DNA of 64,000 nucleotides from Thiobacillus sp. SCUT-2. Lineage in GTDB: Bacteria > Pseudomonadota > Gammaproteobacteria > Burkholderiales > Thiobacillaceae. The notes beneath the pieces were generated by a model. The model saw only the letters and a list, made by a program, of their open reading frames with translations, did not search any database and had not been told where the DNA came from. The translations under genes were made by a program, and so were the position numbers. Location of the stretch: contig NZ_CP141769.1 of NCBI RefSeq assembly GCF_035621355.1, positions 744,001 through 808,000 of the forward strand, given 5' to 3'. This document shows positions 48,050 to 55,973 of this stretch, piece after piece; the stretch's first letter is position 1, and every line of letters begins with the position of its first letter.

Positions 48050-48107
48050 TGGTGCCCGGAACCGGAATCGAACCGGTACGCCATCGCTGGCGAGGGATTT
48101 TAAGTCC
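48050..48107 (-). pseudogene. Displaced 3' half of native tRNA-Leu(TAA); left attachment site
   Basis: These 58 nt equal the 3' portion of tRNA-Leu from the anticodon loop to CCA. The acceptor TCCGGGC, discriminator A and CCA are intact and the T-arm reads ACCGG TTCGATT CCGGT. The matching part of the intact tRNA at 55887-55944 has the same acceptor but T-stem GCGGG/CCCGC, so two base pairs differ with compensation. Bases 48078-48107 are identical to 55915-55944 (30 nt). The fragment has no 5' half and is non-functional. Confidence 0.9.
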
Positions 48108-48153
48108 TAAAGCGGACTCGCAACCCATTGAAGAAAAACGAAAATTCAACACA

Positions 48154-48205
48154 ACTGGACACGATATTGGGCATCCTATTGTTTAAATTGGACATTTTTT
48201 GGACA
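48154..48205 (+). other. Candidate integrase arm-type sites, left end
   Basis: ACTGGACACGA at 48154-48164 recurs exactly at the other end of the element (55807-55817). ATTGGACA at 48187-48194 and a further TTGGACA at 48199-48205 repeat the TGGACA core in the same orientation. They lie 47-98 nt inside the left repeat, partly inside the 3' end of the replication gene. Arm-site function is inferred. Confidence 0.45.
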
Positions 48206-50027
48206 TGGGGAAGACTGCTTTTCCTTTGTCGACCCTCTTGACAACCTTCTGGCGCCGATTTACCGCCTTTTTCGGCACGCGCCCTTCAGGGCGGGGCCGA
48301 TTATGCTCCCCCTCGACCGGGTTTTTCGGTTTACTTGGATAAATTTGTTTAACTGTAACCGTGGGCGCGGGGGGTGGCCGGTGGGTCATAAGCTTCCATT
48401 CATGTGGCCGCGTGATGGCAGGTTCGCCTCCCAGCAAATAGCCCACGAGCCTGGCGCCATCCTCGCCATAAGCCGTCCTGGTGTGCGCCATGAGTGGTTG
48501 GGATGGCGCTGTTTTCCCACCACCGGCGGCTAGGCCGCCGAGCAGGCGCAAGAAGGCGGCGGCGTCCTTAGTGGTGGCAGCCTGCCAAAGACTAGACGCC
48601 AGTTCACCCGGGGGAGCCGTCGAGAGTCGGCGAAGCTCCCGCCACTTGGTGAGCGCGCTGCGTATGCCAAACCATTGGATTCCGCGAATTCCCCACGTCG
48701 AGCGCCAAGCGCCGGCTCGGTCATCCTCGCTCTGTTTGATGACGTATTTCGTTACGTATGCGGCTATGGAGGCGTGAGCCGTATTAATCACAGCGAGTTC
48801 GGCCTGAGTTCCCTCATTCCCGAGCGCCGGTCGCCAGGTACCGGTAAGCGCATCTTCGGGATCGCCGAAGATGCAGCGGTGGTCCTCGCCTTGATGGTCG
48901 CGGATGCGAAGAGCGATTTTGCCCGGGAATACCTTAAGGGTCTCCGCCAGAACGGTGGCCCGTATGTCTGGCCGATATATCAGAAATAAATGCCAGTGTG
49001 GACATCCGTCCCCGTGCGGTTCGGCGGCCCGGAATCCACTGAGCGTAATATCTTGCTTAGCCAGGGAGGCCCGTATTTGCGCCCATCTACGGCCTATTTC
49101 TCTGTTGGCCAGGTCTGGCGTCGTGCCATCCCAGGAGGTTTTCCCAATCGCCGGGGCCGGGTGAAAACTTGGCTCTAGGGTCAGGGTGAGCATTGCCATT
49201 TCTAGGCCGTCAGCCTGCGCCAAGGCCTGCACCCCCGCGCACCACGCCCAAAATTCCGCGAGCTTGGCCTTGGTGGCTGCCTCCCGGGTAGGAAGGGGCT
49301 TGCAAATGACTTCTCCCGTGGCGGCATCCACTCGCTCGGCGGTCGTGTTTTTGAGCCACTCGTCTTGTCTCGCCAAGTTTTGCTGGCGCACCCTTACCGC
49401 GTGGTTACTCGCATACTTCATTCGCCCTCTGCCAACCATCCCAGCCAAGAGGTGCGCGTTTTCAACTGCCCGCATAATGATGCGGCGGATGGTTCTGCGC
49501 CACCACCTAGGCGTTTGAAGCCTGGCGCGCTTGGCTTTCGCGGTTTTGCCCGGGACCTCAAACGGGACGCCGAGCCAATGTTGAGAAACCCGGAGGATTT
49601 GCTCGTCGCCCCAAGCCGGCGTGTTGCATCGCTCGGCCAATACCTCGGCCGCGTCGCGGATGTCGGTCTCATTCCAGCGGAGGTGCCGTTTCCCAGCCAC
49701 CTGGACCGCTTCGGCAATGCGGGCAACGGCCGCGTGCTCATCCCGTTCCTGCTGCTCGTGCAGCGTCCGAAGGACGTGCTGGCCGACCCTTTCTTGCAGG
49801 CTGCCATATCGGCCCTGGAGCAACCTTGCTGCTGGTGCAAAGGGCGCCGCCTCCGACGGGGAAAGCCGCCCGAATATTGGTAAGGCATCCCGACGCTGCT
49901 TATAGGCGCTGGCGATATCCGCCAGGAGCGCGCTTGCGTGTACGCGCAACTCATCAGGAAGGCCTTCTAGCAGGACTTCCGTGGGCGCGGGGGCGTATGG
50001 GGTAGGGAACAGGCCATGCGAACTCAT
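48183..50027 (-). CDS. Rolling-circle replication initiator, phage P2 gpA-like HUH endonuclease
   Basis: A 614-residue replication endonuclease. The metal-binding HUH motif is CPHWHLFLIYR near residue 344. The catalytic two-tyrosine motif is YVTKYVIK near residue 424, with tyrosines four residues apart as in P2 gpA. The N-terminal half is helical (about 60-240), including SNHAVRVRQQNLARQDEWL. The protein would nick one strand at an origin and stay covalently attached to start rolling-circle replication. I chose the ATG at 50027; a GTG at 50042 is also in frame. It ends with a basic tail overlapping the TGGACA motifs. Confidence 0.85.
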   Translation of the reverse strand: MSSHGLFPTPYAPAPTEVLLEGLPDELRVHASALLADIASAYKQRRDALPIFGRLSPSEAAPFAPAARLLQGRYGSLQERVGQHVLRTLHEQQERDEHAAVARIAEAVQVAGKRHLRWNETDIRDAAEVLAERCNTPAWGDEQILRVSQHWLGVPFEVPGKTAKAKRARLQTPRWWRRTIRRIIMRAVENAHLLAGMVGRGRMKYASNHAVRVRQQNLARQDEWLKNTTAERVDAATGEVICKPLPTREAATKAKLAEFWAWCAGVQALAQADGLEMAMLTLTLEPSFHPAPAIGKTSWDGTTPDLANREIGRRWAQIRASLAKQDITLSGFRAAEPHGDGCPHWHLFLIYRPDIRATVLAETLKVFPGKIALRIRDHQGEDHRCIFGDPEDALTGTWRPALGNEGTQAELAVINTAHASIAAYVTKYVIKQSEDDRAGAWRSTWGIRGIQWFGIRSALTKWRELRRLSTAPPGELASSLWQAATTKDAAAFLRLLGGLAAGGGKTAPSQPLMAHTRTAYGEDGARLVGYLLGGEPAITRPHEWKLMTHRPPPAPTVTVKQIYPSKPKNPVEGEHNRPRPEGRVPKKAVNRRQKVVKRVDKGKAVFPMSKKCPI

Positions 50028-50071
50028 GACCTGTATAGCCACCGCTGTTCAAACGAGAACGGCAGGGCAAT

Positions 50072-50100
50072 AAAAAAGCCCGGGGAACCGGCCCCGGGCT
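50072..50100 (-). terminator. Intrinsic terminator after the replication-relaxation-like gene
   Basis: AGCCCGGGG pairs with CCCCGGGCT around a 6-nt loop. On the minus strand a U-run of six follows. It lies between the stop of 50174-50974 and the start of the initiator gene, so the two are probably transcribed separately or with read-through control. Confidence 0.85.
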
Positions 50101-50173
50101 GCCACGGCGTTGATTTATGCCGCGGTCTGAATAAGCAAAATTGTCGAGCGGTCCGGCCTGCCCCGCTCCTAAC

Positions 50174-50974
50174 TCAAAAAAATGAAATTGCCTTGAAACT
50201 GTATAGCAACGACTCAAACGAAACGCGGTGGTCAATTAACTCGTCGGACCATCCAAGGTGCTTTAGGTCCTCCTTTAGGCGACTGGCAAAGGTTGGGGTG
50301 CAGATGAACACCACTCGCGCAAGCTCTACCCCGTCAGTTAACGGGGCGGGCTGCCAGATGTTGCCGTTACCAGTCCATATCCGTTTCAGCCAATCCAGGA
50401 GCTTTTGGTAGTCAGCCTGATTGCGTCGGCTGCGCTCGACCTCAATCCAGAATGCCCTACGACCATCCCGGACCAGGGCGTCGGGGCGCTTGCCGAATAC
50501 ACCAGATGACCCACCAAGCCAAAGGCCTTGCGCAATCTCGCGTTCAGTTGCAACTCGGAAGCCGTCGACGATGGCGCTGATCGCCAACTCGTTGGCGATG
50601 CAGCGGTGCAGATAGTGCTGGCTGCTATAGCGTCTCATCATGTCCTTGCCGGATTTTGCCGGGACCCCCAGTCGCTGGAGCAGCCTGGCACCGCTTTCCG
50701 CAAGCCCATATATCACCCCCCCGTCTGGAGCTTGCGCGCATAGCACGATGCGCTTGTCACGCAGCCGGCGGATGGTTCGCTGTGCCATACGCAGGCTGGA
50801 AGCGGTCGGCTCCAATGGCGTAAGGCTGGGGCCAGCTTTTGGCGGCTGGCTGCGCCATGACCGCCAGACGAGGACCGCGAGGTCCCGACTCCGCAGCCAA
50901 CCAAATCGATGAAGGGCGCGCAGGATATTGGACTCGTTCTTTCTGGCGAGAGCACGACCGTCTTTAGCTTTCAT
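50174..50974 (-). CDS. Replication-relaxation-like protein with winged-helix N-terminus
   Basis: A 266-residue soluble protein. The N-terminal part (about 15-110) looks like a winged helix (NILRALHRFGWLRSRDLAVL, then RTIRRLRDKRIVLCAQAPDG). The C-terminal part has KRPDALVRDGRRAFWIEVER, an (RPDA...EVE) pattern found in the replication-relaxation family and reminiscent of PD-(D/E)xK nucleases. Its ATG at 50974 has GGAG upstream. Its place beside the initiator suggests a role in origin recognition or in control of element copy number. Function remains inferred. Confidence 0.62.
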   Translation of the reverse strand: MKAKDGRALARKNESNILRALHRFGWLRSRDLAVLVWRSWRSQPPKAGPSLTPLEPTASSLRMAQRTIRRLRDKRIVLCAQAPDGGVIYGLAESGARLLQRLGVPAKSGKDMMRRYSSQHYLHRCIANELAISAIVDGFRVATEREIAQGLWLGGSSGVFGKRPDALVRDGRRAFWIEVERSRRNQADYQKLLDWLKRIWTGNGNIWQPAPLTDGVELARVVFICTPTFASRLKEDLKHLGWSDELIDHRVSFESLLYSFKAISFF

Positions 50975-51914
50975 GAGGTAACTCCGTAGTGGACATACCT
51001 CATATAGCTACGGCCTTGCCGTTCTGCTCCCCGTGCGCCACGGGGCGAACAGCGAGGGCGAATAGGAACAAAACCGACCAAGGCCACCACCACCTACCCG
51101 CATGCTGGACGCATGCTCGGCGGCTCGTGCGTCTGAACACCGCACGTGTCCCAAGACCAGGGGCGCCCCATGCCTTTCCTGACTCGCCGAGCGTGTCCCT
51201 CAACGCGTGGGAAACCCACTCCCCCCGGGCCCTTGGCGCGGGCTCCGGCTGCCGCCTCCGGCGCGTCGTCTTCGACTTGCGCTGAACTGGGTTTCCCACG
51301 CCTTTCGGCATGGGGCGCGGGCAAGCCCCCGCGCGTCATCGGCACCGTGGGCGGTTCCTGCCTCGGGCTGGGACGCCCGATTCTGACGGCGGCTCCCCCA
51401 ACCCCAGGGCGTCCCCGCTTGGGCGGGGAGGCACCCTGGCGGGCTGCGGGCTGAACGCCCTGGCCCCACGCTCACCACGCGGCGATGGTTTCACCCTCGG
51501 CTTGGGTGGCGCGGCTCCCCACCCCGTCCAGCTTCGCTCGACGGCGTTCGCTGACTCGCCTGATGGCACGGACTGTGGCCAGACCGTGCCGAGCCTCGGC
51601 TTCGCAGCTAGGTCGTCCCCGTCGCGGTTACGACTATGGCCATCGCTTTTCCCTCGTTCTGCGCTGATGCCGGCAACTTGGTCCAACCCCGCCATGCCGC
51701 AAGGGTCTGGCACTCCGTGCACCCCGTCACCCGGTCCCTGCTGGGCTGCGGCTTCGGTGGTGCCCCTGGCGGTTTGGCTTAGTGGCTTGGTCCTGTCGCG
51801 TTCCGGGCGAAGAACTCAGGAAAGACGGCAGCACATAAACAGCCACCCCCTAACGCCGAGGCCGGAAGGCAGGGGGCTCGGAATCTTGGAATCCGGTCGA
51901 AATGGAGAGCGTTT
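50975..51914. other. 940-bp non-coding stretch with many perfect stem-loops
   Basis: No convincing gene is seen on either strand; open frames here have low-complexity, Pro/Arg-rich translations and no ribosome-binding site. Perfect hairpins include CCCCGTG (51029-51035) with 51039-51045, a 14-bp long-range stem 51205-51218 with 51288-51301, a nested CCAGGG/CCCCGC pair (51404-51439), GGCACGG (51565-51571) with 51584-51590, and GCCGA with TCGGC at 51588-51600. This density suggests a large structured RNA, or an origin region (double- or single-strand origin) of the rolling-circle element. Which strand would be transcribed is not clear. Confidence 0.55.
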
Positions 51915-52169
51915 ATGAACTTTTGGGGTGACGTATGGCAGTGGTTGGGGTTTGGAAACCGTGCCGAGGATCGGCACGGCGGTATTCAGCACGAAAGCTG
52001 CATTAACCCCGCCAACGGGCTGCCGATGGCTGGCGGTTGCGGGGGCGTGGATATCGAGGGCAATCCCTATGGAGCGGATAAGCACACCTGGGGTGGCAGT
52101 TCTGTGGACACCGGCTGGCATAACGACAGCTGGGGTGGTGATAGTGGGTTTGGCGGTTGGGACGATTGA
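51915..52169 (+). CDS. Small Trp/Gly-rich protein of the element
   Basis: An 84-residue protein beginning MNFWGDVWQWLGFGNRAEDR. It has two Cys residues (ESCINPANG; GGCGGVD), a central NPYGADKHTWGGSS and an acidic Gly/Trp-rich end (SWGGDSGFGGWDD). The ATG at 51915 has GGAGAG upstream. It is the only plus-strand gene in the element and begins immediately after the structured region, so the two may share a transcript. No named family is recognised. Confidence 0.6.
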   Translation: MNFWGDVWQWLGFGNRAEDRHGGIQHESCINPANGLPMAGGCGGVDIEGNPYGADKHTWGGSSVDTGWHNDSWGGDSGFGGWDD

Positions 52170-52177
52170 CGTGTCGG

Positions 52178-52828
52178 TTACGTATCTGTCCCGATGAACC
52201 TGTCCGAGGCCGGGAACACCATGGTGCGTAGGTGGTTTTCCACGTCCCGTGCAACGTCCTCGGCGGTCTCCGGGCGTTCCTTGCATTTCACTGCCCACGG
52301 CCTGCCAGGATGCAGAGTGTCCCAGCGCGGTTTCATTCCCTCAAAACGGCCTTTGCCTGGTGTATGGCTTCCGAAGCCTTCACCGATGGAGTTCCAGACG
52401 GGTGCATAGCGGGCAATGAGAAGAGATTCACCCAGCGGTATCCAGATATCCTCGACAACCAGGAAGCGACAGTAGAAGTCGGCAATGTCCAGATTCTCGG
52501 CCTGATTGATGCTCTTGGCATGCTCTTTAAGGCGCTTCATCAGGTGCTTCCCGTTGTTGCCCGCGCCTACGCCACCCCCTTTTCGGGCGCCTTCGGGGAT
52601 AGCCTTGCCGACGTATATTGGAGCCGCAAACTTATTGTCCTTGTTGCGCTTTGCAAGCTCGGCGTAAGGCTGGAGGTTGCCAGTGTAGTAGAGGGCGTAA
52701 ATGCCCGCTCCATTAAAGTCGGGCAGCGCGCCAAGTGGATGGACCGCTTGGGATAGCAGGGCTTCAGCGACGGAGGCTCCGAGGTTTTTCCTGTCGAGCG
52801 GGTTGAACGGAATGATGTCGGCGGTCAT
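52178..52828 (-). CDS. Eco29kI-like GIY-YIG type II restriction endonuclease
   Basis: A 216-residue endonuclease. The GIY-YIG core is GAGIYALYYTG near residue 42 and PIYVGKA near 70. Further catalytic candidates follow with the expected spacing: Arg99 and His103 in MKRLKEHAKSI, Glu134 in PLGESLL and Asn146 in PVWN. The block DIWIPLGESLLIARYAPVWN and the LHPGRPWAVKC end are distinctive of the Eco29kI family, whose founder cuts CCGCGG. The gene overlaps the methyltransferase by four bases, so methylation and cutting are co-expressed. Recognition of CCGCGG is inferred from the family. Confidence 0.88.
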   Translation of the reverse strand: MTADIIPFNPLDRKNLGASVAEALLSQAVHPLGALPDFNGAGIYALYYTGNLQPYAELAKRNKDNKFAAPIYVGKAIPEGARKGGGVGAGNNGKHLMKRLKEHAKSINQAENLDIADFYCRFLVVEDIWIPLGESLLIARYAPVWNSIGEGFGSHTPGKGRFEGMKPRWDTLHPGRPWAVKCKERPETAEDVARDVENHLRTMVFPASDRFIGTDT

Positions 52829-54039
52829 GCGACGTTCCTGGCCCGTTGGATTTCGCGGGCGAGGTCGCGGGCTTGCGCGAGAATCAGCCGCTCGGCGACG
52901 CTAGAGGCCACCGTGCGCGCCAACATCACGGGCACCGCGTTTCCGAGTTGCCTCATGGTCTCGGTCCAGGAGCCGTGGAAGCGGTATCCGTCTGGAAAGG
53001 TCTGCAAGCGGGCCGACTCGCGGATGGTGAAATAGCGAACGCTGCCGTCGTCCTTCACCAGCATGTTCTCCCCGCCGGGGACGCCATGGTCTCCGGCTTT
53101 TAGGGTCTTGGCCGGCATGTCGAAAGGGCTGCCCGTGTGGCCGGGGTATGTCCGCGCTCCAGGCTGGAAGCGATGGTCGGGGATGTGCCTGTTGGACCGC
53201 TTCTCGGGGTTTGGCAAACCAATCAATGCATCCCTTACCGTGCGCCATGGAAGCGTATCCGGCGCAGCCGGATCGCTCGCGAGCCGGCGGACCCGTGCGG
53301 CGTATTTCTCGGGCATGGCAGGAGCGCGCATGCCATGGCGCCGCCAATACTCTCCCGTGACCCATTGGTCATACAAAAGTGCGTCAAGGCTATGGGTCGC
53401 GCGGGGGAAGGACCACTCGACACCAAGGTCGGAACGGAAACCAACGATAAAGACGCGCTCCCGCCGCTGGGGGACGCCATAGTCAGCGGCATTCACGAGG
53501 GTTGGCAGGACGTTGTAGGTAAGTCCCTTTCCTACCGCCTTGCCCGATGCCTTCTCCCGCTGGAGGCGCCGAAAATGGTCCAGCCAGTCCTCGCGCTTGC
53601 GGCGGACGATTTCGGGGAATGTCAGTTGCAGGAGGATGTATTGGTAATAGTTGGCGAAGGTCGAGCGAGTCAGCCCTTTGACGTTCTCAACGATGAAGGC
53701 GCGGGGTCTCAACCGACGAACGACATCGACTGTCGAGGGGAACATATCCCGGTTATCGTCATGCGCCTTATGTTTTCCGCCCATCGAGAAGGGCTGGCAC
53801 GGGGGGCCGCCCGCCACGAGGTCGATGTCCGCGCCGGCGCTTTCCCAATCGAACTCGCGCACGTCTCCCTCATACACGTTCCAGTCGGCGACAAGGGGGT
53901 AAGCGCGTTTGCTGTTCTCGCGGATGGTGTCGCAGGCCCAGCGGTCCCACTCGGCCACTACCGCGGGCTTGAAGCCGGCAAGGCCCACGCCCATTGCTAG
54001 GCCCCCGGCCCCGGCGAACAACTCGACGCATTTCATCAT
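52825..54039 (-). CDS. DNA (cytosine-5) methyltransferase of the R-M system
   Basis: A 404-residue C5 methyltransferase. Motif I is ELFAGAGGLAMGVGLAG, motif IV is GGPPCQPFS with catalytic Cys81, motif VI is IVENVKG, motif VIII is the QRRERVFIVG block, and motifs IX and X are RESARLQTFPDGYRF and QLGNAVPVMLA. The target-recognition region lies between about 210 and 320. It should protect host sites for the endonuclease encoded downstream, and it overlaps both its neighbours by four bases. Confidence 0.93.
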   Translation of the reverse strand: MMKCVELFAGAGGLAMGVGLAGFKPAVVAEWDRWACDTIRENSKRAYPLVADWNVYEGDVREFDWESAGADIDLVAGGPPCQPFSMGGKHKAHDDNRDMFPSTVDVVRRLRPRAFIVENVKGLTRSTFANYYQYILLQLTFPEIVRRKREDWLDHFRRLQREKASGKAVGKGLTYNVLPTLVNAADYGVPQRRERVFIVGFRSDLGVEWSFPRATHSLDALLYDQWVTGEYWRRHGMRAPAMPEKYAARVRRLASDPAAPDTLPWRTVRDALIGLPNPEKRSNRHIPDHRFQPGARTYPGHTGSPFDMPAKTLKAGDHGVPGGENMLVKDDGSVRYFTIRESARLQTFPDGYRFHGSWTETMRQLGNAVPVMLARTVASSVAERLILAQARDLAREIQRARNVA

Positions 54040-54458
54040 TGGTTTTCTTCCCCCTCAAGGAAACGCCGGAGTCTAACCGCCAGCGCGTCCAGGTTCTTTG
54101 TTTCGCATTCCCACACAACAAACACTCGCCACCCGGCGTCCTGCAATGCCGCCACCTTGCGCGCGTCCCGGGCTTTATTGCCTTCCAGCTTGGGCACCCA
54201 GAACTCCTTGCGCGACTTTGGTAAGCGCGCAAGCGCGCAACCCTCGTGCCGGTGCCAGAAGCAGCCGTGTACCAATACGACAGCCCGCCGCCCGGGGAAC
54301 ACCAAATCGGGCGTACCTGGCAAGTCACGGCGATGCAGCCTGTACCGATAGCCCATGCCGTGAAGCAGGCGGCGGACTCGCATCTCAGGCCCCGTGTCGG
54401 TCGAGCGCACCAAGGCCATCCGGCGGCTGCGTTCCTCGGTCGACAGAGTGTCCGCCAT
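54036..54458 (-). CDS. vsr: Very short patch repair endonuclease Vsr
   Basis: A 140-residue T:G mismatch endonuclease that nicks at sites of deaminated 5-methylcytosine. The catalytic Asp is Asp51 in GTPDLVF, with His64 and His69 in VHGCFWHRH and a zinc-site Cys set (Cys66, Cys74, Cys118), the same positions as in E. coli Vsr to within a residue. It is upstream of and overlaps the methyltransferase by four bases. Its role is to counter mutation at methylated cytosines of this R-M system. Confidence 0.93.
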   Translation of the reverse strand: MADTLSTEERSRRMALVRSTDTGPEMRVRRLLHGMGYRYRLHRRDLPGTPDLVFPGRRAVVLVHGCFWHRHEGCALARLPKSRKEFWVPKLEGNKARDARKVAALQDAGWRVFVVWECETKNLDALAVRLRRFLEGEENQ

Positions 54459-54475
54459 TTTACGTAGCCAGCCCG

Positions 54476-55801
54476 CTATTTGGATAGGGGCTTGGTTCCC
54501 AGCTTGGTGACGCTGGGGGTCTCATGCCTTGTTCCCTTTGCGTTCTTGGTTAATTGCTTCGCTTTCACCGGGTCTGACGGTAGCCCTGGCAATTTCCGTA
54601 GCTTGTTCGCCGTCCGTTTCCCGAGAACCCGCTGAATCCACTCCCAGTCCGGGCTCTCGGCAGTAAGCGCGTCCGTCATGGCCTTGTGAATTTCGTCCTC
54701 GACCTCCTGCATGACGTCCCGCTGCACCAGCTCCAATGCGTGTGACTCGATTACCGGGCGCATTTGCTCGCTGCGCAGGTGCTTGTAGCGCCACAATGCC
54801 TGCGGGGATTTATGGCCGCTAAGGGCGGCGATTTGGCCGTCGGATAGCTGGGTTTTCTCGAATAGCCGGCTCACGAACTCGTGGCGCAGGTCGTGAAACC
54901 TCAGATTCTCGATGCCGGCCGCCTTCAGGGTTTCTCGCCAAGCACTGGAATACGAGAAGGGGACGTAGGCGCCGCCCGCTCGCGAGCGGGAGGTGAAGAT
55001 GTAAGGCGAGTCCGCCGGGGAGTCGGCCAGTGCGTGCCGCAAGACGGAGCACATTTCATCCGACAGCGGAATCAATCTCGATTCGCTGTTCTTCGTCGAC
55101 TCAAGAACAATCTGTTTCTTGTCGAGCTTCAGCGACCGCTTTTCCAGCTTGGCGATTTCACCCGCTCGCATGCCCGTGTAGAAAGCGGTGAGAACGAATC
55201 TAGTAAGGCGCTTCTGATCGCTCCGGGCATACAGGGCCACACGGAGGCGCCTTTCCTCTTCTTCACTCAAGCGACGCTTGCGCTCGACCCCGGATGGCTT
55301 GCTGACACCCCGGCAAGGATTGCTCGGTATCAGCGACCATTCCCCTGCGGCGAGGCTCATCACTGTGCACAGCAAGGCCATTTCAAGTCTTACCTGGTCC
55401 CCAGATAGAGGCTTGCCCCGGTGTCCAATGGAACTCATCCGGGTATCGCGGTAGGCCGCAATCAGCGCGGAGTTGATATGGACGATGGAATAGTCGCCAA
55501 GATGGAGGATTACAGGCTTGCTCTTGGTCAGTTCACCTTTCCTAGTCGTCTCCGCCTTCTTGGAGTGGTTCCAGGAGCTGAAATATCGAGTGAACAGGTC
55601 TCGAAGGGTCAAGTTCTTGGCTTCGCGGTACTCGCGTATGGCCAGCGGCAGGGCCACCGCTCCGCCTAGAGCCGCCTCCTGCTCATCCGACCAGCGTTCC
55701 GCCGCCTTCTTCGTTGGGAAGGTCCGCGTTATCAGGGGCACGCCGACACGTCGGATGCGTACTCTATAGGCGCCGGACGGGAGTTTGGTGATGGTGGCCA
55801 T
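54476..55801 (-). CDS. int: Tyrosine recombinase/integrase
   Basis: A 441-residue site-specific recombinase. An N-terminal arm-binding/SAM-like region (about 65-160) precedes the catalytic domain. The catalytic set is Arg212 in TGMRAGEIAKL, Lys237 in TKNSESR, His303 and Arg306 in FHDLRHEF, His330 in LSGHKS and nucleophile Tyr339 in LWRYKHL. I chose the ATG at 55801; the frame extends to 55921 into the tRNA but that part is not plausible protein. It is adjacent to the intact tRNA-Leu, and TGGACA repeats lie just upstream of its start. Confidence 0.94.
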   Translation of the reverse strand: MATITKLPSGAYRVRIRRVGVPLITRTFPTKKAAERWSDEQEAALGGAVALPLAIREYREAKNLTLRDLFTRYFSSWNHSKKAETTRKGELTKSKPVILHLGDYSIVHINSALIAAYRDTRMSSIGHRGKPLSGDQVRLEMALLCTVMSLAAGEWSLIPSNPCRGVSKPSGVERKRRLSEEEERRLRVALYARSDQKRLTRFVLTAFYTGMRAGEIAKLEKRSLKLDKKQIVLESTKNSESRLIPLSDEMCSVLRHALADSPADSPYIFTSRSRAGGAYVPFSYSSAWRETLKAAGIENLRFHDLRHEFVSRLFEKTQLSDGQIAALSGHKSPQALWRYKHLRSEQMRPVIESHALELVQRDVMQEVEDEIHKAMTDALTAESPDWEWIQRVLGKRTANKLRKLPGLPSDPVKAKQLTKNAKGTRHETPSVTKLGTKPLSK

Positions 55802-55806
55802 TGTCG

Positions 55807-55825
55807 ACTGGACACGAATTGGACA
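55807..55825 (+). other. Candidate integrase arm-type or autoregulatory sites, right end
   Basis: ACTGGACACGA (55807-55817) is followed at once by ATTGGACA (55818-55825). The first is identical to 48154-48164 and the second to 48187-48194. Located 6 nt upstream of the integrase start, it could bind the integrase, either for recombination or to repress its own gene. Confidence 0.45.
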
Positions 55826-55886
55826 CGGCCATGATATCCCTTGGCGTTCCGCATGCAAGGGATTTCTGTAAGTGCTTGATTTTGGA

Positions 55887-55973
55887 TGGTGCCCGGAGCG
55901 GGAATCGAACCCGCACGCCATCGCTGGCGAGGGATTTTAAGTCCCTTGTGTCTACCAATTTCACCATCCGGGC
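55887..55973 (-). tRNA. tRNA-Leu(TAA), hybrid gene at the element junction
   Basis: An 87-nt class II tRNA with acceptor GCCCGGA/TCCGGGC, discriminator A, encoded CCA, a long variable arm and anticodon TAA in loop CTTAAAA. The 5' part to the anticodon is native; the 3' part (55887-55944) was supplied by the mobile element. It is last in the Gly-Cys-Leu operon. Confidence 0.96.
55915..55944. repeat. Right copy of the 30-bp attachment repeat
   Basis: Identical over 30 nt to 48078-48107. It spans the anticodon loop, anticodon stem and variable arm of tRNA-Leu, with core GCTGGCGAGGGATTTTAAG. The two copies define the element ends; recombination between them would restore the original tRNA. Confidence 0.92.

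What the first reader, a model, noticed from the sequence alone, without database searches (positions are those of the whole stretch)
48078..55944. Compact integrative element that couples a tyrosine integrase to a P2 gpA-like rolling-circle initiator
The element has just two mobility-related functions that can be seen, integration (int) and rolling-circle initiation (HUH protein with HWH and YxxxY), together with an R-M cassette and a large non-coding region. No capsid, relaxase or conjugation genes are present. This could be a phage satellite, an integrative rolling-circle plasmid or a lineage not yet described.
Basis: partly seen in the sequence, partly recalled or inferred. Interest (0 to 1): 0.82.

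Follow-up and report, generated by a model that had tools for sequence, protein, structure and literature searches.

The report
Small tRNA-inserted mobile element family
A 7.8-kb mobile DNA element sits cleanly inside a leucine tRNA gene of a Thiobacillus-type bacterium; it carries integration and replication genes plus an uncharted, heavily folded stretch of DNA or RNA that is kept in related elements and may be the site from which they move between cells.

Summary
A 7.84-kb element (48108-55944) is inserted in tRNA-Leu(TAA): a 58-nt direct repeat bounds it, and 29 of 29 congener loci examined show the empty site. It encodes a tyrosine integrase and an intact-looking HUH initiator of the P2 gpA/PM2 P12 class (HxH and YxxxY kept in 28 of 28 rows). 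It is not a P2 remnant. 'No relaxase' is doubtful: gene 50174-50974 (RR) matches, marginally, Replic_Relax (PF13814), the domain of MOBC-type relaxases. The 'non-coding' region beside it (about 50990-51480) is a large, strongly covarying nucleic-acid structure, absent from Rfam, found upstream of RR in 22 of 24 related loci. RR modules also lie in four tRNA-bounded elements of 10-17 kb; in three, an AAA_25 or DUF5906 gene holds the slot that HUH has here, with R-M cargo. Best reading: one member of an unnamed family of small mobilizable-type integrative elements, with HUH in the replication slot and the folded region as RR's candidate transfer origin. RNA versus single-stranded DNA, nicking and transfer are untested.

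The parts
48050..48107 (.). displaced 3' half of the chromosomal tRNA-Leu(TAA): outer attachment site (last 30 nt, 48078-48107, identical to the other copy)
   Evidence: direct repeat D1; identical to the tRNA 3' half of 23 of 29 congeners
48183..50042 (-). HUH replication initiator, P2 gpA / PM2 P12 class
   Evidence: PF05840 8.4e-31, phrog_91 2.3e-50; HxH and YxxxY kept in 28 of 28 rows
50174..50974 (-). RR: Replic_Relax (MOBC-type relaxase candidate), winged helix + PD-(D/E)XK-like domain
   Evidence: PF13814 26.4 bits, cut-off 25.3; models and fold searches; relatives in 24 named loci
50990..51480 (-). conserved folded region (RNA or single-stranded DNA undecided; minus strand favoured); candidate transfer origin. 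Modelled core 51096-51319
   Evidence: covariation, model R1, strand test, no Rfam match, non-coding
51915..52169 (+). sp: 84-aa conserved small protein, divergent from RR
   Evidence: tblastn matches (E<=1e-3) in 12 of 24 RR loci and in L166, not L169
52178..52828 (-). Eco29kI-type restriction endonuclease
   Evidence: PF09517 1.4e-68
52825..54039 (-). C5-cytosine DNA methyltransferase
   Evidence: PF00145 7.4e-57; TIGR00675
54036..54458 (-). Vsr mismatch endonuclease
   Evidence: PF03852 1.7e-28; TIGR00632
54476..55801 (-). tyrosine integrase (frame open from 55921 inside the tRNA; likely start 55801)
   Evidence: PF00589 1.9e-25; catalytic residues and start
55887..55944 (.). element-borne 3' half of tRNA-Leu that restores the gene; inner attachment site
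   Evidence: D1; four differences from the chromosomal copy, forming two compensated T-stem pairs
55887..55973 (-). tRNA-Leu(TAA), the insertion target
   Evidence: ARAGORN, RF00005

Best explanation
It is a small integrative element of a so far unnamed family that shares a backbone: RR (a MOBC-type relaxase candidate), a large folded region directly upstream of RR, often a small divergent gene, a replication gene, a tyrosine integrase and restriction-modification cargo, inserted at tRNA genes. Steps shown by sequence: site-specific insertion at tRNA-Leu with replacement of the tRNA's 3' half by a foreign one; conserved catalytic motifs in integrase and HUH initiator; conservation and covariation of the folded region; the same circular gene order (RR, replication gene, int, R-M cargo, sp, folded region) in sister elements L114 and L118, though not every orientation. 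Steps inferred: the integrase excises a circle; the HUH protein nicks an origin, probably inside its own gene as in P2 and PM2, and replicates the circle by rolling circle, filling the slot that AAA_25 or DUF5906 genes fill in relatives; RR binds and nicks the folded region as a transfer origin, so that a helper conjugation system can move the element; the R-M/Vsr cassette is cargo that protects host and element.
For: Boundaries and empty sites. Gene identities. HUH motifs 28/28. RR: PF13814 above cut-off (3 of 6 close relatives at E<=0.01); N-terminal winged helix, Z 11.2 to a MarR protein; C-terminal model (pLDDT 83.6) brings up many restriction-endonuclease-like proteins; D165, E178 invariant and E180 nearly so in 20 rows. 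Literature: PF13814 relaxases recognised as MOBC in streptococcal IMEs (PMC5357655, passages); MOBC relaxases related to the PD-(D/E)XK superfamily, TraX of pAD1 with an N-terminal winged HTH (PMC12857230, passages). Folded region: covariation score 0.487 against 0.131 shuffled and at most 0.105 slid; found upstream of 24 of 24 close RR genes searched (22, 20 of them training rows; L166; L167). Family: integrase in 15 of 24 RR loci, in 7 within 150 bp of a tRNA; RR between two copies of a 45-nt tRNA end in 4 of 13 RR loci tested; AAA_25 or DUF5906 in 7 of 26 loci, in all 6 of these with an integrase lying between RR and int (4 of the 7 supplied the query proteins); R-M neighbours. Nick or cleavage sites inside the initiator genes in the P2 and PM2 records.
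Against: No coupling protein, T4SS gene or known transfer origin was recognised in the element, and no search proves nicking. The PF13814 match is marginal; only 3 of 6 close relatives reach E<=0.01, and a PF13814 search of the own genome did not even return RR (0 matches at E<=1; its loose first look passed 2 candidates). PD-(D/E)XK matches are weak row by row (best Foldseek E 6.7e-3; the best Z, 6.5, is a protein of unknown function and the next an RNA-polymerase subunit). HUH is in 0 of 26 other RR loci, so its partnership with RR rests on this one element. Nine of 24 RR loci show no integrase by my own profile; four of these (L111, L115, L116, L124) are full 20.8-kb stretches. The folded region could be an RNA with another role. 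Of 13 distant RR loci searched, 7 gave no match of the fold in place. No excision, circle or transfer was tested.
Confidence: 0.55

Rival explanations
1. The folded region is a large structured non-coding RNA made from the minus strand, a partner or regulator of RR (for example an RNA-controlled nuclease for element maintenance or defence), not a transfer origin.
For: In pairs chosen without allowing wobble, minus-strand G-U exceeds A-C by 27 to 11 (p 0.014) and the plus-strand count is 9 to 26 (p 0.006); multibranch layout, drawn on either strand; in the window the minus strand folds better against shuffles as RNA (z -3.64) than the plus strand (z -2.82); the loop TGGAC/TGAAC recurs in up to three perfect hairpins per copy. 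RR modules lie beside R-M genes.
Against: A true RNA control from the same order, RNase P, shows G-U 57 to A-C 2 by the same procedure; the excess here is much weaker. The plus strand folded as DNA also beats shuffles (z -3.37). No transcript evidence. Cells are not independent, so the p values overstate.
Confidence: 0.35
2. The element is a phage satellite that is packaged by a helper phage; HUH or primase-type replication, integrase and R-M cargo are satellite features.
For: Small size, tRNA insertion, replication plus integrase plus defence cargo; sister elements carry AAA_25 and DUF5906/D5_N genes, which are common in satellites (recalled); one RR locus was filed as viral in IMG/VR (L166). 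gpA-type genes occur in phages of three unrelated kinds.
Against: No PHROGs head, tail or packaging match among the eight frames scanned (seven genes and one alternative frame, E<=0.1); no P2/PM2 structural or Zot match; no RR relative in 50,697 phage records (E<=1e-3) and 1 in the IMG/VR scan, a contig whose RR part is HsdM, RR, AAA_25 and int.
Confidence: 0.2
3. Worn fragment of a P2-like prophage.
For: The HUH gene belongs to the gpA family.
Against: Precise empty sites; intact att repeats; no P2 structural gene; the three of 25 HUH loci that score closer to this HUH than to P2 A or PM2 P12 (L026, L029, L136) show no P2 structural match in the stretches held, and only 1 of 25 (L037) shows P2 tail genes.
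Confidence: 0.02
4. RR with its folded region is an independent defence or selfish module that merely shares islands with integrases and R-M genes.
For: RR can stand without a recognised integrase in the stretch held (9 of 24 loci); type III methylases are frequent neighbours (7 of 95 proteins); in L084/L126 the RR frame is cut and runs on into a frame with a marginal sacsin-domain match.
Against: Same circular order with replication gene and int in the bounded elements L114 and L118, and RR-replication gene-int order in 6 of 6 loci that hold all three.
Confidence: 0.2

Closest known systems
Integrative and mobilizable elements with a PF13814/MOBC relaxase (streptococcal IME class 8; PMC5357655, passages seen)
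   Same: integrase + Replic_Relax gene, no T4SS of its own
   Different: there serine integrase and a VirD4 coupling protein; here tyrosine integrase, no coupling protein recognised, a large conserved folded region and an HUH initiator
P2 gpA / PM2 P12 rolling-circle initiators
   Same: PF05840 domain, HxH, two tyrosines
   Different: 24-27% identity; here no virion genes, sits in a small integrative element
G260 element (L029): tyrosine integrase 180 bp from tRNA-Ala with gpA-type HUH, MobA/VirD2-type relaxase + LPD7
   Same: int + HUH at a tRNA; its HUH scores closer to this one than to P2 A or PM2 P12
   Different: canonical relaxase, no RR match and no folded region found
Phage satellites (P4, PICI; recalled)
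   Same: compact, tRNA site, replication + int + defence cargo
   Different: no head, tail or packaging gene recognised
Large structured RNAs in Rfam 15
   Same: several hundred nt, multi-hairpin, intergenic
   Different: no match to any of 4227 families, even at E<=1

Membership tests
HUH initiators of the gpA class | PF05840 domain | tested here: met
   107.6 bits, cut-off 31.4
HUH initiators of the gpA class | HxH motif and two catalytic tyrosines | tested here: met
   28 of 28 aligned rows
HUH initiators of the gpA class | nicks an origin and replicates by rolling circle | not testable with these tools
   inferred from family
MOBC relaxase | Replic_Relax domain PF13814 | tested here: met
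   26.4 bits against cut-off 25.3; marginal, 3 of 6 close relatives at E<=0.01; the genome-wide family search did not return it
MOBC relaxase | N-terminal winged helix (as in TraX of pAD1) | tested here: met
   Z 11.2, rmsd 2.4, 74 aligned to 3e6m_G
MOBC relaxase | PD-(D/E)XK nuclease fold | tested here: inconclusive
   many rows are such nucleases (R2 endonuclease, BspD6I2, Hjc, BsaWI, EcoO109I) but best Foldseek E 6.7e-3 and best Z 6.5
MOBC relaxase | specific nicking at a transfer origin | not testable with these tools
   -
Integrative and mobilizable element | site-specific integrase with att sites | tested here: met
Integrative and mobilizable element | own relaxase and/or transfer origin, no T4SS | tested here: inconclusive
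   RR is a candidate relaxase, the folded region a candidate origin; no T4SS gene recognised among the element's proteins
Integrative and mobilizable element | excision and transfer with a helper | not testable with these tools
   -
P2-like prophage or remnant | P2 structural or packaging genes | tested here: not met
   19 P2 proteins tried at E<=0.01, only A matches
Phage satellite | packaging, capsid-interference or phage-derived structural genes | tested here: inconclusive
   eight frames against PHROGs gave no head, tail or packaging family; satellites without such recognisable genes and cos/pac sites were not tested
Rfam RNA families | covariance-model match | tested here: not met
   0 matches at E<=1 in 50900-52200

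The most novel reading that the evidence does not exclude
The region 50990-51480 is an example of an unrecognised class of large structured nucleic acid (about 0.45-0.5 kb, repeated TGGAC/TGAAC-loop hairpins, a three-way junction and a long closing helix) that is the constant partner of a MOBC-type nuclease and forms the core of a Burkholderiales-centred family of tRNA-targeted elements: either the first relaxase whose origin is read as an elaborate single-stranded fold, or an RNA-partnered relaxase.
Probability: 0.3. Interest if true: 0.85.

Novelty: new variant of a known kind. Interest (0 to 1): 0.6.

Why it matters
If right, a backbone shared by many unnamed genomic islands in Burkholderiales becomes recognisable by one covariance model and one protein family, which would turn 'orphan' R-M islands into predicted mobilizable elements. 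It would also give MOBC-type relaxases a structured origin that can be tested directly, and show that replication modules (HUH, AAA_25, DUF5906) are exchanged at a fixed place in such elements.

Tried and rejected
P2 remnant: rejected. Corticovirus or inovirus remnant: PM2 P1, P2, P9 and a Zot protein do not match the element, though PM2 P9 or P2 matches in L043, L044, L045 and L140, and Zot in L040.

Folded region as a protein gene: rejected; 10 of 21 sequences have no stop-free frame, 97 of 469 gap runs are multiples of three, mismatches show no period of three (1252, 1193, 1251).

First idea 'hardly any wobble, so DNA': weakened. By a fold that forbids wobble, minus-strand wobble exceeds anti-wobble 27 to 11, so RNA versus ssDNA stays open. 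In one search the pairs were chosen with wobble allowed, which biases towards the strand folded.

HUH-RR pairing in another genome: G223 has both the best-scoring HUH (contig C25) and a distant RR (C46), on contigs that begin with the same 58 bp in the same orientation; adjacency cannot be concluded. HUH beside int at tRNA-Leu elsewhere: none in 25 loci.

Solved structures by sequence: nothing useful for RR or HUH. CloDF13 MobC could not be identified in the record fetched, so RR was not compared directly with a proven MOBC relaxase. Viral-contig scans with the single HUH and RR proteins: none confirmed. NCBIfam: no hit for RR, HUH or sp. PF13814 over the own genome: no match. Literature searches (listings); passages seen of PMC5357655, PMC11104534, PMC12857230, PMC6414798. 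Nothing describing this folded region was seen, but no search could name it and most subscription papers are not held. No MOBC relaxase was among the 50 rows shown of each fold list; that shows nothing.

Rows left out: A2 holds 22 sequences (no L123, L128, L129); A3 21 (also without L127, a near copy of L119); near-copies L111/L121 both kept. RNase P control used 22 of 25 loci (L154, L156, L158 left out). Neighbour scan A6 used 95 of 184 called frames from 19 of 24 loci. Repeat test used the 13 RR loci with a tRNA chosen for it, plus the window. R1 also gave six weaker hits on the opposite strand of places already matched and one out of place (L090, 16.0 bits).


Full report
Setting. The window is 744001-808000 of a single 3.01-Mb contig.

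The element is real and precisely bounded. A 58-nt direct repeat (48050-48107, 55887-55944; 93%) matches the 3' half of tRNA-Leu(TAA), which is intact at 55887-55973. The inner 30 nt are identical (which also puts the chance number of such pairs in 64 kb at about 2e-9 for even base use). I tested the empty site in 29 other genomes of the genus, the best of 91 with any flank match: in 29 of 29 the base equivalent to 48107 is followed directly by the base equivalent to 55945. In 23 of 29 the outer 58-nt copy is identical to the congener's own tRNA end (the other six are 96.6-98.3%), so the outer copy is the old chromosomal one and the element brought its own 3' half. The two halves differ at 48061, 48063, 48075 and 48077, which form two compensated T-stem pairs: the tRNA stays foldable, and the donor probably lay outside these congeners. 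Element GC is 0.611 against 0.683 for the rest of the window. The 52-54-kb segment and the HUH gene each match once in the genome. In the 55 other genomes of the genus the best HUH matches are 30-32% identical.

Gene content. From the tRNA inwards: tyrosine integrase (54476-55801), Vsr, C5 methyltransferase and Eco29kI endonuclease, a small gene sp (51915-52169, opposite strand), a gap of 0.94 kb, RR (50174-50974) and HUH (48183-50042). Of 19 P2 proteins, 4 PM2 proteins and one Zot protein only P2 A and PM2 P12 match, both on HUH.

HUH. It belongs to the gpA/P12 class. 28 of 28 aligned rows (window, P2 A, PM2 P12, 25 loci) keep HxH and both tyrosines. Such genes are common: 38 of 300 genomes of the order at E<=0.001, own included, 294 phage records and 49 plasmid records at E<=1e-5. 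In the 25 loci fetched they occur with P2 tail genes (L037), PM2-like P9 or P2 proteins (L043, L044, L045, L140), Zot (L040), or a relaxase (L029). An integrase accompanies 14 of 25, by my own profile, and three of these integrases lie within 300 bp of a tRNA (Ala, Arg, Thr), none at Leu. So coupling of int and a gpA-type initiator is neither unique nor enough to define a lineage. L026 (G223), L136 (G416) and L029 (G260) are the three of 25 that score closer to this HUH than to P2 A or PM2 P12; no tree was made. L029 is a tRNA-Ala element with a MobA/VirD2-type relaxase.

RR. PF13814 Replic_Relax at 26.4 bits (cut-off 25.3); 3 of 6 close relatives match at E<=0.01; a PF13814 search over the own genome did not return it. 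The model has an N-terminal winged helix (Z 11.2 to 3e6m_G). The C-terminal part modelled alone on 20 sequences (pLDDT 83.6) brings up many restriction-endonuclease-like proteins, each weakly, together with unrelated rows. D165 and E178 are invariant and E180 nearly so in 20 rows. PF13814 relaxases are recognised as MOBC in streptococcal IMEs (PMC5357655, passages). A review states that MOBC relaxases are related to the PD-(D/E)XK superfamily and that TraX of pAD1 has an N-terminal winged HTH (PMC12857230, passages). A distant RR relative on a Variovorax plasmid (27.5% identity) lies 5.6-7.7 kb from TraU, TrbC and TraN genes. I therefore call RR a MOBC-type relaxase candidate; activity is not shown. 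RR is found in 8 of 300 genomes of the order, 5 of 100 of the family (E<=0.001) and 4 of 369 of the class (E<=1e-6), own included each time.

The folded region. A genome-contig scan with an RR alignment gave 24 loci: 20 with titles naming betaproteobacterial taxa, three unspecified Proteobacteria, one Halothiobacillaceae (grouping from knowledge). About 0.5 kb upstream of RR is conserved in 22 aligned sequences. Many stems change on both sides while pairing is kept, around constant loops TGGAC or TGAAC (for example GCATGC-TGGAC-GCATGC here, GCAAAAC-TGGAC-GTTTTGC in L114, GCTGAGC-TGAAC-GCTCAGC in L117; L109, L113 and L122 have no perfect stem of four or more at such a loop). For a 33-pair structure on 21 sequences (A3), 135 cells change on both sides against 44.0 +/- 5.1 in shuffles, and the covariation score is 0.487 against 0.131 +/- 0.015 shuffled and 0.048-0.105 slid. 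The structure was drawn from the same sequences, which favours it over slid versions; I rely on the size of the margin. A covariance model (R1) scores 22 of the 24 loci at 90 bits or more (20 of them its own training rows), L128 at 51.6 and L129 not at all. The four close-RR loci outside the training set match: L127 (150.5, near copy of a training row), L123 (91.8, cut by the contig end), L166 (137.7), L167 (165.1). Of 13 distant RR loci, six give weaker matches upstream of RR in the same orientation: L128 51.6 and L099 39.0, L096 32.9, L168 32.4, L091/L101 25.5, L094 17.3; seven do not (L129/L090, L092, L093, L095, L086, L024, L046). In 300 genomes of the order R1 (E<=0.001, strict filters) matches only the three genomes with a close RR, plus a 95-nt partial copy in the host genome (L134). 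It is not in Rfam and not coding. 51480-51914 shows no excess folding (z +1.10).

RNA or DNA? In pairs chosen by a fold that forbids wobble, RNase P from the same order gives G-U 57 and A-C 2 on its sense strand. The folded region gives 27 and 11 on the minus strand, and 9 and 26 on the plus strand. The minus strand, the one that reads towards RR, is favoured, but far less sharply than for a known RNA. Single-stranded DNA, where G-T is the mildest mismatch (recalled), could also give a weak bias. I leave this open.

The family. By my own integrase profile an integrase is present in 15 of 24 RR loci, and in 7 it lies within 150 bp of a tRNA gene (Ser three times, Lys twice, His, Pro). L169, an RR locus from the class search, has one about 130 bp from tRNA-Ala. 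Of 13 RR loci tested, two copies of the tRNA's last 45 nt bracket RR in four: L114 (about 10.3 kb, tRNA-Lys), L118 (11.8 kb, tRNA-Lys), L127 (10.3 kb, tRNA-Pro) and L125 (17.0 kb, tRNA-Lys); L126 has a 17-nt repeat 13.7 kb away. AAA_25 or DUF5906 genes occur in 7 of 26 loci (L108, L109, L112, L114, L118, L125, L166; the query proteins came from L114, L118, L125 and L097 = L109), and in all 6 of these with an integrase they lie between RR and int. R-M genes are frequent neighbours: N6_N4_Mtase in 8 and ResIII in 6 of 95 neighbouring proteins; PADLOC type III methylase in 7; Eco57I-type in L114, type III in L118, an N6/N4 methylase in L125, HsdM in L166. Drawn as circles, the window, L114 and L118 have the same order: RR, replication gene, int, R-M cargo, sp, folded region; the insertion cut falls between int and cargo in L114 and L118, and between HUH and int in the window; in L118 the replication gene and int are turned round. 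L125 has the same order without a recognised sp. L127 has an IS66 transposase and no recognised R-M or replication gene. sp is found in 12 of 24 loci and in L166. HUH is in none of the 26.

A trace of an earlier element. In the host genome a 95-nt piece of the fold (L134) lies between an MvaI/BcnI-type restriction endonuclease gene (PF15515 5e-36) and tRNA-Asn; no RR-like gene was noted among the frames of the 3.1 kb held, and RR itself matches only once in the genome. This fits the remains of another RR element with R-M cargo at another tRNA.

Reading. The element is best seen as one member of this family in which an HUH initiator takes the replication slot. Excision by int, rolling-circle replication by HUH (the P2 and PM2 records place a nick or cleavage site inside the initiator gene), nicking of the folded region by RR and transfer by a helper are inferences. 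My confidence is highest for the boundaries and the conservation of the folded region, moderate for RR as relaxase, and low for any particular route of transfer.

Noticed in passing
L134 (G000:C1:1105432-1105526), outside the window: A 95-nt partial copy of the folded region lies between an MvaI/BcnI-type restriction endonuclease gene and tRNA-Asn: probably the remnant of an earlier RR element.
   Followed up: partly
window 50975-51001: Inverted repeat (GAGGTA...TACCTC) just before the RR start, kept with changed sequence in relatives and without strand bias in wobble (14 G-U, 12 A-C): looks like an operator, possibly for RR's winged helix. A conserved GTATAG block follows.
   Followed up: partly
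L026 and L099 (G223 contigs C25 and C46): The best-scoring HUH relative and a distant RR with a weak match of the fold lie on two contigs that start with the same 58 bp.
   Followed up: partly
L084:8220-12689 / L126: The RR match ends after about 204 residues and the frame runs on into a frame with a marginal sacsin-domain match.
   Followed up: no
L166:8730-12547: Beside the RR element in this IMG/VR contig lie a second integrase, a DUF4224 protein, an HNH protein and a reverse transcriptase.
   Followed up: no
window 51915-52169: Several sp homologues share a motif like INPASGLPMxGGxGGVDVxGNPYG after a tryptophan-rich start; only a below-cut-off Pfam match (TraS, 16.5 bits of 27.4), none in PHROGs or NCBIfam.
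   Followed up: partly
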